A stretch of DNA of 23,259 bases from a virus. The stretch is taken from IMG/VR virus record IMGVR_UViG_3300002231_000657, positions 39,737 through 62,995 of that record; one strand, 5' to 3'. The stretch's first letter is position 1, and each line of letters opens with the position of its first letter. Shown here piece after piece: positions 105-8,625 of the stretch. The notes under the pieces are model-generated. The model was not told the origin of the DNA and searched no databases. It saw only the letters and a program-made list of their open reading frames with translations. Both the position numbers and the translations under genes were made by a program.

Positions 105-569
105 ATGAAATTAAACGAAATCGAAAATAAAAAAATAGAATTAACGCCTTCTCTACTTTCGGAACACTTCGATGCTGTGGAAGGAATGCACATATACGGG
201 CATTATATTTTAAATAAAAACTTAACAGAGAGTAATAGTGAAGAAGAAGTTAATCGCATCAATATATTACACACCGAGGATCCCACCGTTTCCCAAGATT
301 ATTATGGCCTGAGTTTTGTTGTAGTAAACGACACAATCCATCCATATGATAATTTCTATGGAAAGGTTATTAACAAGAAACGACTACCTAACGGTGGTTA
401 CCGGTGCACTGTCGAATTTAGTGATGGTTCGACAACAACTTATCCAAACGAAGTGTCTAGTCTGATGCCATATAAGACTCTTTTCCATTCGGATAAATTG
501 GCCCACAATGATATTGAACTTAGTCTTAAACTATCCGACACTGTAGATTTTTCACCTATTAGAAAATAA
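105..569 (+). CDS. Uncharacterised protein with a possible small beta-barrel (Tudor/SH3-like) patch
   Basis: This 154-residue protein is of unknown family. I use ATG 105; the frame also opens at TTG 93, but that would overlap the upstream stop. The ribosome site is weak (GG-rich, no clean AGGAG). Residues about 85-130 alternate hydrophobic and polar residues (GKVINKKRL, YRCTVEFSDGSTTTYP), a pattern seen in small SH3/Tudor-like barrels that ends in a short acidic tail. This fold guess is from pattern only. There is no signal peptide or membrane segment. The gene ends just before a strong promoter and so closes the upstream transcription unit. Confidence 0.7.
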   Translation: MKLNEIENKKIELTPSLLSEHFDAVEGMHIYGHYILNKNLTESNSEEEVNRINILHTEDPTVSQDYYGLSFVVVNDTIHPYDNFYGKVINKKRLPNGGYRCTVEFSDGSTTTYPNEVSSLMPYKTLFHSDKLAHNDIELSLKLSDTVDFSPIRK

Positions 570-2980: not shown

Positions 2981-3733
2981 ATGTCTGCAACAACAGAACC
3001 AAGAGTTGAAATAATAAATCAAGTTAAGCTGATTTTAGGTGATCAAATGATCGATCTAGAAGCAGATCCTGAACACTATGATTTGGCGATCGATTTAGCA
3101 ATAGAAAAACTACGCCAAAGATCCGACGGAGCGACAGAAGAATCTACACTGTTCTTAACCCTCCAGCCGAATCAAACAGAGTACACTCTACCTGCCGAAG
3201 TATTAAACGTTAGACGCTTACACAGACGCGGCGTTGGCGCAAATAGCACAGGTGGTACGAACTTTGACCCATTTGAAGCAGCTTTCAGTAACATTTATCT
3301 TCTCCAAGCAGGCAGAACAGGTGGCCTTGCAACGTGGGATTTCTTCAGCCAGTTCCAAGAAACACTAGGTAGAGTATTTGGCTCAGAGCTTAATTTTACG
3401 TGGAACGCATCCACTAAAAAACTTAAAATCATACGCAGAATACGTGGCGAAGAAGATGTAGCAATCACAGCATATATTATCAAACCAGAACACTCACTTA
3501 TACAAGACCCATATACAAGACCGTGGATACGTGACTACGCAGCGGCGAATGTAAAGATGATGATCGGTGAAGCACGTAGTAAATTTACAGGTGGTTTACC
3601 TGGACCAAACGGCAACGTTATTCTTAACGGTACAGAATTAAAAACAGATGCCCAAGCAGAAATAGAACGTCTATTACTTGAGTTAGATAACCTAGTAACA
3701 GCAGACAACGGTTATAGTTTCGTAATAGGCTAA
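2981..3733 (+). CDS. Neck/connector protein, gp13-like
   Basis: A 250-residue virion protein, probably part of the neck that seals the filled head and joins it to the tail. The N-terminus (about 8-85) has the pattern of phage head-tail adaptors: a helix with LGDQMIDLE, then AIDLAIEKLRQRSDG, then a strand ending in YTLPAEVLNVRRLHRRG. The C-terminus has FTWNASTKKLKI (139-150), the core PWIRDYAAANVKMMIGEARSKFTG (181-204), LPGPNG, ILNG, and a final EIERLLLEL...SFVIG. From memory this is the architecture annotated as gp13 neck protein in T4-like cyanophages; I could not run a search. It is the first gene after a late promoter and its stop overlaps the next ATG. It could instead be another connector subunit. 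Confidence 0.6.
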   Translation: MSATTEPRVEIINQVKLILGDQMIDLEADPEHYDLAIDLAIEKLRQRSDGATEESTLFLTLQPNQTEYTLPAEVLNVRRLHRRGVGANSTGGTNFDPFEAAFSNIYLLQAGRTGGLATWDFFSQFQETLGRVFGSELNFTWNASTKKLKIIRRIRGEEDVAITAYIIKPEHSLIQDPYTRPWIRDYAAANVKMMIGEARSKFTGGLPGPNGNVILNGTELKTDAQAEIERLLLELDNLVTADNGYSFVIG

Positions 3734-4272
3734 TGAAAATAAGAGAGATCCTTGCAGAAGGAATATTAGATGATATAGTTGGCGACTATCCAGATCAAGT
3801 AAAAGTCGACACACCAATATCAACTATAAAAACAACACCACGAAAACGTCACGTGCCACGTGCAGTATATAAAGGTGAACCTGCAAAAGGATTTAAAGAA
3901 TATGTTCGCTATGCAGAAAAAGACACAATGCATTTACAAGATGTGGTGAATATGTTTGCAAAAGAAAATAAAGCACTAGCAGATAACGTAACTATTAATG
4001 TTCCTGTTTCTGAGCTAGATACAATTAAAGAATATGATAGAGAATTAATAAACGGATTTACGGGTAAAAATACTGCCGATGAAGTAGCAGCAATGACCGC
4101 AGATATTAAAAAGAACGGCATACGTGATCCAGGCGTAGTAACATTAAATCGTAAAAAGAATGGTACAATAACAGCAATCTTAGGCGAAGGCAATCACAGA
4201 TTAAATATTGCAAAGAAACTAGGACTAAAAACAATGCCAGTTCGTTTTTATTATACGGAAACATTTAGATGA
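3733..4272 (+). CDS. ParB/sulfiredoxin-fold protein with a capsid-targeting-like leader
   Basis: A 179-residue protein. Residues about 118-173 match the ParB N-terminal/sulfiredoxin fold: ADIKKNGIRDPGVVTL, then the signature GEGNHRL at 151-157, then AKKLGLKTMPVRF. In ParB-like proteins the GxGxHRLxA segment binds nucleotide, and members act as CTPases, nucleases or kinase-like enzymes; which applies here cannot be read from sequence. The N-terminus MKIREILAE-G resembles the T4 internal-protein leader, which ends in (L/I)xE. The ATG overlaps the previous stop (TAATG), and the stop overlaps the next gene by 4 nt, so it belongs to the late operon. No ParA partner is present, so a role in partition is unlikely. 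Confidence 0.7.
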   Translation: MKIREILAEGILDDIVGDYPDQVKVDTPISTIKTTPRKRHVPRAVYKGEPAKGFKEYVRYAEKDTMHLQDVVNMFAKENKALADNVTINVPVSELDTIKEYDRELINGFTGKNTADEVAAMTADIKKNGIRDPGVVTLNRKKNGTITAILGEGNHRLNIAKKLGLKTMPVRFYYTETFR

Positions 4273-6203
4273 AAGCAATTGAAATATTACTAGAAGACAA
4301 GCTGGAGCACCTAGCAAAGACGATGGGTCCAAAACTTCTCTCTGCCTTTGAGAGAGACACAATGTTTGTGACAGATGGCGAAGAAATGACCCCCGAAAAA
4401 ATCCTCAGTATATTAGCAGGAGCAGATCCCCAAGGCCAAAAGCACCTACAGTGGATTGCTAAATTATATGCTAACAACATATTTAGAATGGAAGATCTTA
4501 ATAGAGTGCAAAACGCACTGTCTCAATTCGTAGCAAAGAAACGTGGATTAGAAAAGAAAGACATCGGACAATACAAAACATTAGCAGATTTAGAAGATGC
4601 AGTCGAGGATGCTGAAGAAGTAAAAAGTAAACGACAAGAAAAGCAAGATATAAAAGCCGAAGGTGCAGATATAATATTCGAATCAAACGATTACACGATT
4701 ATAAAATTAAAAACAGAAGCAGCAGCATGTTACTACGGTAAGAATACAAGATGGTGTACAACCGGTGATCAAAATAACATGTTTGATTATTACAATCAAG
4801 ATGGCCCAATCTATGTAATACTAGATCACAAGATTAATAGAAAGTTCCAAGTACATTGGGAAAGCAACCAATTTATGAACGAACGGGACGAAGCAATCGA
4901 TGCATATTATATGGTGGAACAATACCCTGCATTATATAAAACAATGCCAAAGACATCAAGAGCAGCATATGATCTAGCATATTCGGCAGGAAAACCACTA
5001 CCAAAAGTAGAACCACTGATAGCAAAGTCGGGAAACGATTCAGCAAGTTACGCATTATATGTAACGCACGAAAGATTCCCCGCAGGCGAACCTGCCATTA
5101 TTAAAGCAGGTATGGAAGATGATTATGATGGCCCAAACAATTTGAGTCAATACATGACTGATTTTATAGATGAAGGTGAACGCTGGCCTGAGGCAGAACA
5201 TGCCATAGCCCGACACGGATTTATAGCGTTGGAATATGCATCGACACATTTAAATGGAGAACGATTCCCCGAAGCAGAAAAACATATGCCGATGGAAGAC
5301 CAAGAAAGCGCAATTGCATACGCAAGAGATATACTAAAAAGACGCTGGCCACAGCTAGAACAAGAAATAATAACTAAAATGGAATCACAGCCGAATGCAG
5401 TATCGACGGCATTAAAATATGCAAACTTAGTCATTAAAGGAAGATGGGAAGAAGCAGAAAGATTTATATCTAGTAATGGCGAAGCATCGTATAAATACGC
5501 AAAAGATATAATTCACGGAAGATTCAGCCAAGGCGAAACAGCAATGGTAGAAGATACGCCACACCTAGCGATTAAATATGCCAACGAAATATTAAAAAGT
5601 AGATTCCCAAAACTTGAAAGACGGGTGTTTAAAAAATCAGCGAGAGTTGTCGAGTACATGAATGAGGTTATTAAGCCACTGGGAAAACGTTGGCCAGAAT
5701 TTGAAGAATATATGGAATCAGGCAAAGCAGAAAAAGAAATGGATAAAGGATTTAGTGGACCTGTTAGCCGCGATGAATACCGCATTCGGTTAGTGCTAAA
5801 ATACAGCCAAGAGATACTCGAAGGAAGATGGCCTGCTATGGAATCTAAAATATTAAAATACCCACCCATGGCAGTTTCTTACGCAATTCACATAATGAAG
5901 ACACGCTGGCCTGCCTTAGAAAAAGTATTATTCTCCCAAAAAAATCCCCCTGCAGAATTAATATTAAAATACGGCAAAAAATTCATCCAAGGCGAGTGGC
6001 CAGCCTTCGAAAAAAACATAGATAATTCCGCAGCACTTGTTAGCTATGCAACTAAAATTAAAAAAGATAGATTAAAACCAGAGCAAGAAAAACTTGTTAA
6101 AAAGCAAGCAAAACAAAATAATATGGGAACGTGGGATTGGTACAGAGATGAATTTGATATATTTGAGAATGTACAATCACTAAGGAAAAAGGCAGGACTA
6201 TGA
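4269..6203 (+). CDS. Large RWPEAE-type helical repeat protein with a YGxxTxWCT domain
   Basis: A 644-residue protein in three parts. Residues 1-9 (MKAIEILLE) form a leader-like peptide. Residues about 10-225 are a domain with DPQGQKHLQWIAKLYA, LEKKDIGQY, KRQEKQDIK and the signature YGKNTRWCT (156-164), then GPIYVILD and QFMNERD. From memory, this YGxxTxWCT domain is widespread in phage proteins without a known function. Residues about 231-620 hold about 12-13 tandem repeats of 24-38 residues, consensus ALxYAxxIIxGRWPEAExxI (e.g. near 286-310, 340-365, 382-405, 530-553), predicted to form paired helices like a HEAT/TPR solenoid. No membrane segment is seen. A shorter paralogue lies at 6796. 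The solenoid suggests protein binding; a packaged or injected role is inference from the leader. Confidence 0.85.
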   Translation: MKAIEILLEDKLEHLAKTMGPKLLSAFERDTMFVTDGEEMTPEKILSILAGADPQGQKHLQWIAKLYANNIFRMEDLNRVQNALSQFVAKKRGLEKKDIGQYKTLADLEDAVEDAEEVKSKRQEKQDIKAEGADIIFESNDYTIIKLKTEAAACYYGKNTRWCTTGDQNNMFDYYNQDGPIYVILDHKINRKFQVHWESNQFMNERDEAIDAYYMVEQYPALYKTMPKTSRAAYDLAYSAGKPLPKVEPLIAKSGNDSASYALYVTHERFPAGEPAIIKAGMEDDYDGPNNLSQYMTDFIDEGERWPEAEHAIARHGFIALEYASTHLNGERFPEAEKHMPMEDQESAIAYARDILKRRWPQLEQEIITKMESQPNAVSTALKYANLVIKGRWEEAERFISSNGEASYKYAKDIIHGRFSQGETAMVEDTPHLAIKYANEILKSRFPKLERRVFKKSARVVEYMNEVIKPLGKRWPEFEEYMESGKAEKEMDKGFSGPVSRDEYRIRLVLKYSQEILEGRWPAMESKILKYPPMAVSYAIHIMKTRWPALEKVLFSQKNPPAELILKYGKKFIQGEWPAFEKNIDNSAALVSYATKIKKDRLKPEQEKLVKKQAKQNNMGTWDWYRDEFDIFENVQSLRKKAGL

Positions 6204-6796
6204 GAGCAGCAGAAATACTAAACGAATCAATTATAAATAAGCCACTAGTTGTAGTTGACGTGCAACCTGCCTATTCATATAACATTAACTTTGGCCAAAA
6301 ATTAGCAAGAACTAATTGAGAAAAGAACCGGTGAAACACTAATGTATGTAAATGCAGAAGATACAGGCGCAAGCGACGATACCCTACAAGAAATAAAAGA
6401 ATTTTGGTGGCGTTTTGGGTATGGAAGAAGATACCCTAAACAACCTGTCGTGGTTCGATAAAGGATACGGTAATCTCCGCGAAGCAATGGATACCGGTGC
6501 TAGTGACCACGATATTATCGCTGTAATACGTGAGATGTTTCGACAAGACGTAAACGACAGTCGTATGTTATTCGACGAAGATTACGACAAACAGCTAGAG
6601 GCCTTTGGAGAAGATAATATAGAGTGGATACAATTCGGCATCTCCATTATGGATCTTTAACGGCTTTGATACCCTAAAGAGAATGAGCCCATTCTACCTA
6701 TGTGGCGGAGGCAAAGATGAGTGCCTGAAAGAAGTGATGCTAATGTGCAACGCCCTTAATATAAAATACAAATTACTATCGGAGTTTATATACTAA
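6200..6796 (+). pseudogene. Broken isochorismatase-like (cysteine hydrolase superfamily) gene with three +1 frame breaks
   Basis: ATG 6200 overlaps the upstream stop. Translation gives MRAAEILNE, then PLVVVDVQPAY, the start of the isochorismatase-like fold, and stops at TGA 6317-6319. The homologous reading continues in the next frame from 6309 (ELIEKRTGETLMYVNAEDTG). It continues in the third frame from about 6412 (EDTLNNLSWFDKGYGNLREAMDTG to 6655), and back in the first frame from 6656 (GFDTLKRMSPFYLCGGGKDECLKEV to TAA 6794-6796). Removing one A near 6307, one T near 6413-6416 and one T near 6656-6658 would restore about 197 codons. Both gene overlaps are kept, so the loss looks recent. No other gene in the window is broken this way, which argues against general sequencing error, but errors are not excluded. 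Confidence 0.75.
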
Positions 6797-7890
6797 TGAA
6801 ATTATTTGAATTATTTCTTATAGAAAATAAGATATCACACCTTGTTAAAACAATGGGTCATAAAGTCATGGCCGCATATAATAACGACACATACGCCCAG
6901 CGATTTCTTCCAAACAGCGAAGAAGTAACAGCAGAAGAAATAATAGGTTATTTAGCAAATGTTGATCCACAAGGACAAAAACATTTACAATGGATAGTTA
7001 AATTGTATGCTAATGGAGATTTTAAATTAGAAGATCTCGAACGGGTAGAAACAGCACTAATACAATTTACAGAAAAGAAACGTGGTCTAGAAAAGAAAGA
7101 TATCGGACAATATAAAAAATTATCAGAACTAGAGCAAGCAGTAGAAGATCAAGAAGAAGTAAAAAGTAACCGCCAGAAGAAACAAGAAATAAAAGCAGAC
7201 GGTGCAAAAGTATTATTTAAATCTGCGAAATATTTAATAATAGATCTTTACACAGAAGCCGCAGCGAAATTTTATGGAAAGAATACTAAATGGTGTACAG
7301 CCTCTGATAAAAATAATATGTTTAACACTTATATTGATTATAGTCCACTTTATGTTATTGTTGATCGTTCATCAAATCGAAAGTATCAATACCAATGGGA
7401 TCATGAAGATCCGCAATTCATGGATGAAAACGACGACGATGTAGACATAGATAAATTAATACGTAAATATCCTGCAATAACAACTACAATAAGTCCAAGG
7501 TCGAGCATTGACCATGTAAATATGGCACTTGTACTAGCAAAACGAACACCCGAGGCTGATAAAGAAGTATTAGCCCACTACGAAGATTATCCCGATGATA
7601 GGTTATTAGAATCATACCTTTTGATAGTAGTCGAAGATCCGTGGCCAGAAGCCGCAGCAGCCATACTTAGCAAAGGTGAAGCCGCAGATGCTGGTGTGGC
7701 ATTGGCGTATGCTTATGTTTTGGGAAAAAAATGGCCAGAAGCAGAATCAGCAATTGCATACAATTCACAAACATCATTAAACTATGCTAGAGATATACTA
7801 CACGGACGTTTTCCAGAAGGTGAAGAAATTATAGCACAATCCGATTATGCCAAAAGCGAATATAACGACCTGTTCGGAACAAACCTATAA
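6796..7890 (+). CDS. Shorter paralogue of the YGxxTxWCT / RWPEAE repeat protein
   Basis: A 364-residue protein with ATG overlapping the previous stop and GGAG 11 nt upstream. Residues 1-225 align along their length with the 4269 protein: DPQGQKHLQWIVKLYA, KKRGLEKKDIGQYK, YGKNTKWCT (160-168), YVIVDRSSNRKYQ and QFMDENDD. The repeat part is short: about three clear units (DPWPEAAAAILSKGEA, GKKWPEAESAIAYNS, LNYARDILHGRFPEGEEII) plus a degenerate one, against 12-13 in the larger copy. The leader is MKLFELFLIE. The two genes are diverged duplicates flanking the broken hydrolase gene. It is the last gene of the operon. Function unknown. Confidence 0.85.
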   Translation: MKLFELFLIENKISHLVKTMGHKVMAAYNNDTYAQRFLPNSEEVTAEEIIGYLANVDPQGQKHLQWIVKLYANGDFKLEDLERVETALIQFTEKKRGLEKKDIGQYKKLSELEQAVEDQEEVKSNRQKKQEIKADGAKVLFKSAKYLIIDLYTEAAAKFYGKNTKWCTASDKNNMFNTYIDYSPLYVIVDRSSNRKYQYQWDHEDPQFMDENDDDVDIDKLIRKYPAITTTISPRSSIDHVNMALVLAKRTPEADKEVLAHYEDYPDDRLLESYLLIVVEDPWPEAAAAILSKGEAADAGVALAYAYVLGKKWPEAESAIAYNSQTSLNYARDILHGRFPEGEEIIAQSDYAKSEYNDLFGTNL

Positions 7891-7974: not shown

Positions 7975-8625
7975 ATGATAATAGGAATTCTAGGAATTGC
8001 CGGAAGTGGTAAAGACACCATAGCAGATTATTTAGTTGAAAATTATAATTACAAGAAAGACAGTTTCGCAGCATCACTCAAAGATGCAACCGCAGTGATG
8101 TTTAACTGGGACCGCGAAATGCTGGAAGGTAGCACACCAGAATCGAGAGAAGAACGAGAAATAATAGATCCATACTGGAGTGAAAAATTAGGAATGCCAT
8201 GGTCTCCACGATATGCATTACAGTATCTCGGCACAAATGTCCTACGCAAACAATTCTACGATGGGATTTGGCTATCTAGCTTAGAACACAGATTATTGAC
8301 AGCAAAGCACGATACAGTTATTTCCGATGTAAGATTCCCAAATGAAGTAAAATTAATCAAAGAATCCGGCGGTATCCTCATCCATGTTAAACGTGGAGTC
8401 AACCCAGCCTGGCAAGAGATAGCAATCGAAGCAAACAAAGGCAATGCCGACGCCATTGCTGTCATGCAAGGAAAATATTCGCATGTACATGAATCAGAAT
8501 GGGCCTGGGCAGGTACCAAAGCAGATTACACAGTCGACAATAACAGATCGTTCGAAGAACTATACAGTGATGTTAGTGCAGTGTGGAATGGTATTACAAC
8601 TAAGCCAAATTTGACGTTAGTTTAA
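7975..8625 (+). CDS. 1: Deoxynucleoside monophosphate kinase (T4 gp1-like)
   Basis: A 216-residue P-loop kinase; T4 gp1 is about 240 residues. It phosphorylates dNMPs to dNDPs to supply phage DNA synthesis. The Walker A loop GIAGSGKDT is at residues 7-15 at the very N-terminus, as in this family. SFAASLKDATAVMF, LQYLGTNVLR and ISDVRFPNE follow in the order expected of dNMP kinases. An AAGGAG site at 7959-7964 fixes ATG 7975. It is a single gene behind P2, which fits early/middle timing for nucleotide metabolism. The product should be cytoplasmic. I cannot tell which dNMPs it accepts. Confidence 0.85.
   Translation: MIIGILGIAGSGKDTIADYLVENYNYKKDSFAASLKDATAVMFNWDREMLEGSTPESREEREIIDPYWSEKLGMPWSPRYALQYLGTNVLRKQFYDGIWLSSLEHRLLTAKHDTVISDVRFPNEVKLIKESGGILIHVKRGVNPAWQEIAIEANKGNADAIAVMQGKYSHVHESEWAWAGTKADYTVDNNRSFEELYSDVSAVWNGITTKPNLTLV

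What the first reader, a model, noticed from the sequence alone, without database searches (positions are those of the whole stretch)
3733..7890. Operon whose four products all start with a T4-like capsid-targeting leader
Seen: the 3733, 4269, 6200 and 6796 genes start MKIREILAE, MKAIEILLE, MRAAEILNE and MKLFELFLIE; 17698 starts MTTFLELLE. Downstream sequences are unrelated, apart from the 4269/6796 paralogues. Known: T4 internal proteins carry a roughly 10-residue N-terminal capsid-targeting sequence, removed by prohead protease gp21 after (L/I)xE. Inference: these are packaged proteins injected with the DNA, forming a late cassette of delivered effectors made of a ParB/sulfiredoxin-fold protein, a hydrolase and two WCT/repeat proteins.
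Basis: partly seen in the sequence, partly recalled or inferred. Interest (0 to 1): 0.75.

Follow-up and report, generated by a model that had tools for sequence, protein, structure and literature searches.

The report
Capsid-cargo cassette with T4-like leaders
A large bacterial virus carries a swappable row of genes whose otherwise unrelated proteins begin with the same short tag, which most likely gets them packed into the virus head and then injected into the bacterium with the DNA; phage T4 is known to do this, but it is seen here in distant jumbo phages with a new family of cargo.

Summary
Four adjacent, overlapping genes (3733, 4269, 6200, 6796) encode nine- or ten-residue starts ending in (L/I)xE. 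However, the 6200 gene is broken by three +1 insertions relative to an intact relative, and 17698 is a core virion protein whose PA5oct relative lacks the motif.

A tighter one is enriched at gene starts against internal methionines in this contig (4/65 against 0/314) and in a 330-kb relative (10/391 against 2/1,616). In Pseudomonas jumbo phage PA5oct it is enriched among mass-spectrometry-detected proteins (6/93 against 2/352, p=0.0014). PA5oct's homologue of 4269/6796 is itself annotated as detected.

In 26 of 30 aligned homologues, LxE sits directly before the domain although the leader varies. Related phages hold tandem sets of unrelated proteins sharing a leader beside capsid genes, and several encode the gp21/S77 protease. 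The same N-terminal adaptor can carry WCT or PARP domains. PA5oct lacks the cassette between the same flanking genes.

Best reading: capsid-targeted, protease-processed, injected effectors working like T4 internal proteins. Cleavage and injection are inferred. The protease is not on this fragment.

The parts
3733..3759 (+). leader MKIREILAE, predicted cut after LAE
   Evidence: translation; same layout as T4 IPII/IPIII MKTYQEFIAE
3733..4272 (+). 179-aa ParB-like protein with leader
   Evidence: PHROG ParB-like families E about 1e-5 over residues 115-172; Pfam ParB_N only below cut-off
4269..4295 (+). leader MKAIEILLE, predicted cut after LLE
   Evidence: the E is a nearly invariant column in A5
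4269..6203 (+). 644-aa protein: leader, helical adaptor (about 10-125), WCT domain (about 130-225), then repeats with WPxxE motifs
   Evidence: homologue of PA5oct EST35_0205, annotated ESI-MS/MS structural protein; alignments A3/A4; AlphaFold model pLDDT 86
6200..6226 (+). leader MRAAEILNE, predicted cut after LNE
   Evidence: relative L033 has MRLDEIKQLNE before the same body
6200..6796 (+). frame-broken gene; the intact form in L033 is 199 aa with VVVDVQPAY shortly after the leader (hydrolase-like by eye, no family match)
   Evidence: three +1 insertions at 6310, 6413, 6656 against L033; no Pfam or PHROG match for the intact form
6796..6825 (+). leader MKLFELFLIE, predicted cut after LIE
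   Evidence: PA5oct homologue starts MKLFEVFTLYE
6796..7890 (+). 364-aa paralogue of 4269: leader, adaptor, WCT domain, shorter repeat tail
2981..3733 (+). left flank: neck protein (T4 gp13-like head-tail adaptor); stop overlaps start of 3733
   Evidence: PHROG 211 1.9e-30; 59% identical to PA5oct 117153-117905
7975..8625 (+). right flank: deoxynucleoside monophosphate kinase (T4 gp1-like)
   Evidence: Pfam DNMK 1.7e-14; 46% identical to PA5oct 117910-118551, which starts 4 bases after the neck gene there

Best explanation
3733-7890 is a cargo cassette inserted between the neck and dNMP-kinase genes of a jumbo phage's structural operon. Each product begins with a nine- or ten-residue capsid-targeting leader. 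During head assembly the leader binds the scaffold core, so the protein is enclosed in the prohead. The phage's gp21-type (S77) protease then cuts after (L/I)xE, freeing the mature protein. It is ejected with the DNA and acts in the host at the very start of infection. The two WCT proteins consist of leader, a conserved helical adaptor, a WCT domain and repeats. Related phages put a PARP domain on the same adaptor, or ankyrin repeats after a WCT-like domain, which points to host-takeover or anti-defence effectors rather than structural parts. Shown: the leaders, homologue detection in virions (by annotation), motif enrichment, LxE conservation, protease genes in relatives, and cassette mobility. 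Inferred: packaging in this phage, cleavage, injection, and effector action.
For: Virion detection: PA5oct EST35_0205, 41% identical to both WCT proteins from residue 1, carries an ESI-MS/MS note. Leader enrichment: 6 of 93 MS-detected against 2 of 352 other PA5oct genes, p=0.0014; 6 against 0.20 expected after shuffling N-termini. 4 of 65 starts against 0 of 314 internal Met here, and 10 of 391 against 2 of 1,616 in G001. T4 IPII and IPIII match the form with a longer spacer. Junction conservation: 26 of 30 homologues with a complete N-terminus have [LI]xE directly before the domain despite leaders of 9 to about 25 residues; E9 is nearly invariant in A5. Candidate capsid-protein maturation sites in relatives read LxE too: FLVE/NASAG, LLKE/SSAG, YLSE/SATAG. 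Protease: S77 in PA5oct and six related contigs. Shared leaders on unrelated proteins: G001 has an HExxH protein, a PARP-like protein and a WCT protein in a row. Salicola phage SCTP-2 has the HExxH relative followed by a protein with a similar YHG start, with leaders MLIKHVLNE and MKIKDLMEA. G010 has five genes of four families sharing MSxFxxIxxxIL-type starts, just upstream of the capsid gene. L122 has three WCT genes soon after protease-, scaffold- and capsid-like genes. Cassette behaviour: PA5oct lacks it between the same neighbours; close relative L033 has the 3733 and 6200 homologues but no WCT genes.
Against: No S77 or gp23 gene is on this 63-kb fragment, so the protease is inferred from relatives; none was found on G010 either. 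No virion data exist for this phage, and no N-terminal peptide data were available even for PA5oct (its omics paper is not held). The PA5oct MS list includes likely carry-over proteins such as ribonucleotide reductase and thymidylate synthase, so detection is not proof of packaging. The tighter motif was partly tuned on the window. In the AlphaFold model the leader runs into the first adaptor helix, though at low confidence. Three homologues lack LxE (L079, L092, L097), and in L004 the site lies further inside. Nothing shows directly what the WCT domain does.
Confidence: 0.75

Rival explanations
1. The proteins are ordinary internal or structural head components (core or neck-associated) that share a core-docking leader but are not injected effectors.
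For: The cassette is embedded in the structural operon; PA5oct places its WCT gene between terminase and a virion protein and calls it structural. T4 core and vertex proteins also have such starts (gp22 MLKEQLIAE, gp24 MAKINELLRE).
Against: The genes are dispensable within the lineage (no WCT genes in L033 and no cassette at this site in PA5oct), vary in number, and relatives carry PARP, HExxH and ankyrin domains, which do not look structural.
Confidence: 0.15
2. The shared start is only the natural beginning of an amphipathic helix, with E and I/L common in AT-rich phage proteins; there is no targeting or cleavage.
Against: Shuffling N-terminal residues gives 0.20 against 6 observed in PA5oct virion proteins, while the other proteins stay near background (2 against 0.48); LxE position is kept while leader length and sequence change; clusters of unrelated genes share leaders.
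Confidence: 0.07
3. The products are cytoplasmic late proteins (assembly chaperones, anti-defence factors) made in the infected cell and merely co-purified with virions.
For: The PA5oct virion list includes metabolic enzymes.
Against: Leader enrichment in the detected set would then be unexplained; leader genes lie next to capsid genes in several different contigs.
Confidence: 0.05

Closest known systems
T4 internal proteins IPI, IPII, IPIII and Alt with capsid-targeting sequence, processed by gp21
   Same: About 10-residue start ending in (L/I)xE (T4 IPII/IPIII MKTYQEFIAE); unrelated bodies sharing only the leader; variable accessory genes. Leader role and L/I-x-E cleavage as reviewed in PMC9026906; anti-restriction roles of Ip1-3 in PMC12373910.
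   Different: Nearest genome with annotation is PA5oct (Arenbergviridae), not a T-even phage; no homology of the bodies to IPs in the searches run; leaders end at residue 9 or 10; part of the cargo has a conserved adaptor domain; the cassette sits between neck and kinase genes.
PA5oct EST35_0205 (Arenbergviridae)
   Same: Homologue of 4269/6796 from residue 1 (41% identity), annotated as virion-detected, in the same structural module.
   Different: One copy, different insertion site (after the large terminase gene), no ParB-like or 6200-like neighbour there.
Long propeptides of giant-phage head proteins (SPN3US, phiKZ)
   Same: N-terminal propeptides removed by a gp21-related protease after a short motif ending in E; inferred targeting role (PMC5694885).
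   Different: Those are mostly over 100 residues; here 9 to about 25 residues.
Polyvalent proteins of phages and conjugative elements
   Same: Overlapping effector domains (ART/PARP, zincin-like HExxH, ParB); proposed packaging and injection (PMC5512222).
   Different: Here the cargo are separate proteins, each with its own leader, rather than giant multidomain chains.

Membership tests
T4-type capsid-targeting sequence (CTS) cargo | Short N-terminal leader of about 10 residues ending in (L/I)xE | tested here: met
T4-type capsid-targeting sequence (CTS) cargo | Leader shared by proteins with unrelated bodies | tested here: met
   3733, 4269/6796 and 6200 in the window; G001, G010 and SCTP-2 clusters
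T4-type capsid-targeting sequence (CTS) cargo | Protein present in virions | tested here: inconclusive
   Met for the PA5oct homologue by database annotation; no data for this phage
T4-type capsid-targeting sequence (CTS) cargo | gp21/S77 protease encoded by the phage | tested here: inconclusive
   Absent from this 63-kb fragment, present in PA5oct and several relatives
T4-type capsid-targeting sequence (CTS) cargo | Cleavage after (L/I)xE in the mature protein | not testable with these tools
   Needs N-terminal peptides; PA5oct omics paper not held
T4-type capsid-targeting sequence (CTS) cargo | Leader alone suffices for packaging and injection | not testable with these tools
   Needs reporter fusions
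T4 internal proteins (IPI-III) by descent | Sequence homology of the mature body to IPs | tested here: not met
   No IP family among Pfam or PHROG matches; T4 not among the tblastn matches of 4269
PARP/ART effectors (T4 Alt-like) | ART catalytic domain in window cargo | tested here: not met
   No ART match in the window proteins; found on the same adaptor in L089
ParB-fold proteins | ParB N-terminal domain in 3733 | tested here: inconclusive
   PHROG E about 1e-5, Pfam below cut-off

The most novel reading that the evidence does not exclude
A general, modular injection system exists across many distantly related large phages. A short lineage-specific leader matched to each phage's own head protease is placed in front of a conserved phage adaptor (EKKDINQY domain), whose C-terminal effector (WCT, PARP) is exchangeable and may be followed by repeats, with the junction residues changing (LxE to RIA) where the S77 protease was not found.
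Probability: 0.4. Interest if true: 0.8.

Novelty: new variant of a known kind. Interest (0 to 1): 0.62.

Why it matters
Capsid-targeting leaders have served to find internal proteins in T-even phages. If the same logic holds in distant jumbo phages, a short N-terminal motif plus the phage's own protease specificity becomes a way to read out, from sequence alone, which hypothetical proteins are injected at the start of infection. Those are prime candidates for host-takeover and anti-defence functions, and the WCT/adaptor family would be a widespread one with no assigned function yet.

Tried and rejected
17698 as a leader protein: rejected, its homologue lacks the motif. T4-type late promoters (TATAAATA): six matches, none upstream of the cassette. 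S77 and gp23 on this contig: none. WCT domain identity: no PDB relative by sequence or fold (best E 0.2); BFVD gives only other uncharacterised or repeat-named viral proteins and weak PcfJ-like hits. Adaptor in cellular genomes: 60 pattern matches, none confirmed, and only one peptide pattern was scanned. Relatives of 3733: none found in phages or IMG/VR by search, only a cut homologue in L033. Intact 6200 relative: no further homologues found.

Full report
Observation. The window is the last 23 kb of a 62,995-base virus record. The genes overlap: neck/3733 and 6200/6796 at TAATG, 3733/4269 and 4269/6200 at ATGA. The 6200 gene is not open: it stops after 39 codons, and compared with the intact 199-aa gene in L033 it carries three extra bases at 6310, 6413 and 6656. 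Codon differences to L033 are 62 synonymous and 20 non-synonymous, so the break is recent or an error. 17698 is a conserved virion protein whose PA5oct homologue lacks the motif.

Is the motif more than chance? The pattern common to the window leaders, M[KR]xx[ED][ILVMF] followed within five residues by E, is: 6/93 against 2/352, p=0.0014. Shuffling residues 2-12 gives 0.20 expected in the detected set and 0.48 in the rest, where 2 are seen. Counting the same pattern at internal methionines gives 0 of 314 here against 4 of 65 starts, and 2 of 1,616 against 10 of 391 starts in the 330-kb contig G001. As positive control, T4 IPII and IPIII (MKTYQEFIAE) match the form with a longer spacer; IPI does not. 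The pattern was chosen after seeing the window, so the PA5oct and G001 results are the fairer tests.

What the proteins are. 4269 and 6796 share a leader, a helical adaptor ending in a conserved EKKDINQY-type motif, and a domain with an invariant W-C; 4269 then has repeats with WPxxE motifs. The PA5oct homologue EST35_0205 is annotated as detected by ESI-MS/MS. Homologues occur in tens of virus contigs but none was confirmed in cellular genomes. L089 has the same adaptor with a PARP domain; L052 has a WCT-like domain followed by ankyrin repeats. 3733 has weak ParB-like similarity. The intact 6200 relative matches no family.

Leader conservation. Of 30 aligned homologues with complete N-termini, 26 have [LI]xE immediately before the domain, with leaders from 9 to about 25 residues and little other similarity (some rows are close relatives of each other). 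Two of the exceptions (L079, L092) read RIA at that point and come from contigs where no S77 protease was found; a WCT protein of the siphovirus CcrBL9 has no LxE there. Candidate maturation sites of capsid proteins in relatives also read LxE. S77 proteases were found in PA5oct, G001, G003, G007, G008, G011 and G012, not on this fragment.

Shared leaders elsewhere. G001 has an HExxH protein, a PARP-like protein and a WCT protein in a row, each with the leader. The isolate Salicola phage SCTP-2 has the HExxH relative followed by a protein with a similar YHG start, with leaders MLIKHVLNE and MKIKDLMEA. G010 has five genes of four families sharing a different leader just upstream of its capsid gene (5 starts, 0 of 345 internal Met). 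L122 has three WCT genes soon after protease-, scaffold- and capsid-like genes.

Cassette. The window is collinear with PA5oct; neck and kinase genes, 59% and 46% identical, are 4 bases apart in PA5oct but 4.2 kb apart here. PA5oct keeps its single WCT gene after the terminase gene. L033 has the 3733-like and 6200-like genes but no WCT genes before the kinase. This is the behaviour of a variable cargo locus.

Mechanism and standing. In T4 the first ten residues of IPIII target it to the head and gp21 cuts after L/I-x-E (PMC9026906); Ip1-3 share no homology except the leader and block restriction enzymes (PMC12373910). The window cassette works like this by the features that could be tested, but packaging of these very proteins, cleavage and injection are inferences. 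It is not a member of the IP families by descent. The held literature searched did not describe this outside T4-like and phiKZ/SPN3US-type phages; that search is not exhaustive.

Noticed in passing
L002:6730-8712 (contig 26,730-28,712, upstream of the window): A GGDEF-EAL protein with a weak GAF match (cyclic-di-GMP enzyme; EAL 2.7e-60, GGDEF 2.9e-40) encoded on the phage contig.
   Followed up: no
L089:5995-7326 and L147:4932-6266: The leader plus EKKDINQY adaptor of the WCT family is fused to a PARP domain instead of WCT; some neighbours in L147 have similar EIVKEIL-type starts.
   Followed up: partly
L072, L079, L092: WCT homologues with RIA near the leader/domain junction in place of LxE, in contigs where no S77 protease was found.
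   Followed up: partly
window 105-569; L002:3202-3846; L002:4048-4590: Further possible leader proteins of the same phage: MKLNEIENKK, MKATEVIRYLDILKE (PHROG 15502) and MQYTDITEGPEW.
   Followed up: partly
PA5oct 260677-261429 and 261410-262099 (minus strand): Two adjacent leader proteins with a HELRHALD/HELQHALD metallopeptidase-like motif, both annotated ESI-MS/MS.
   Followed up: no
C-termini in the window and relatives: A short LxxxAG[IL]-type motif recurs near protein ends (window 4269 ...LRKKAGL, PA5oct scaffold ...LRRLAGIK); possibly a second docking signal.
   Followed up: no
BFVD hits: WCT-like domains also appear in Marseillevirus LCMAC201/202 proteins, one named an ankyrin repeat protein.
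   Followed up: no
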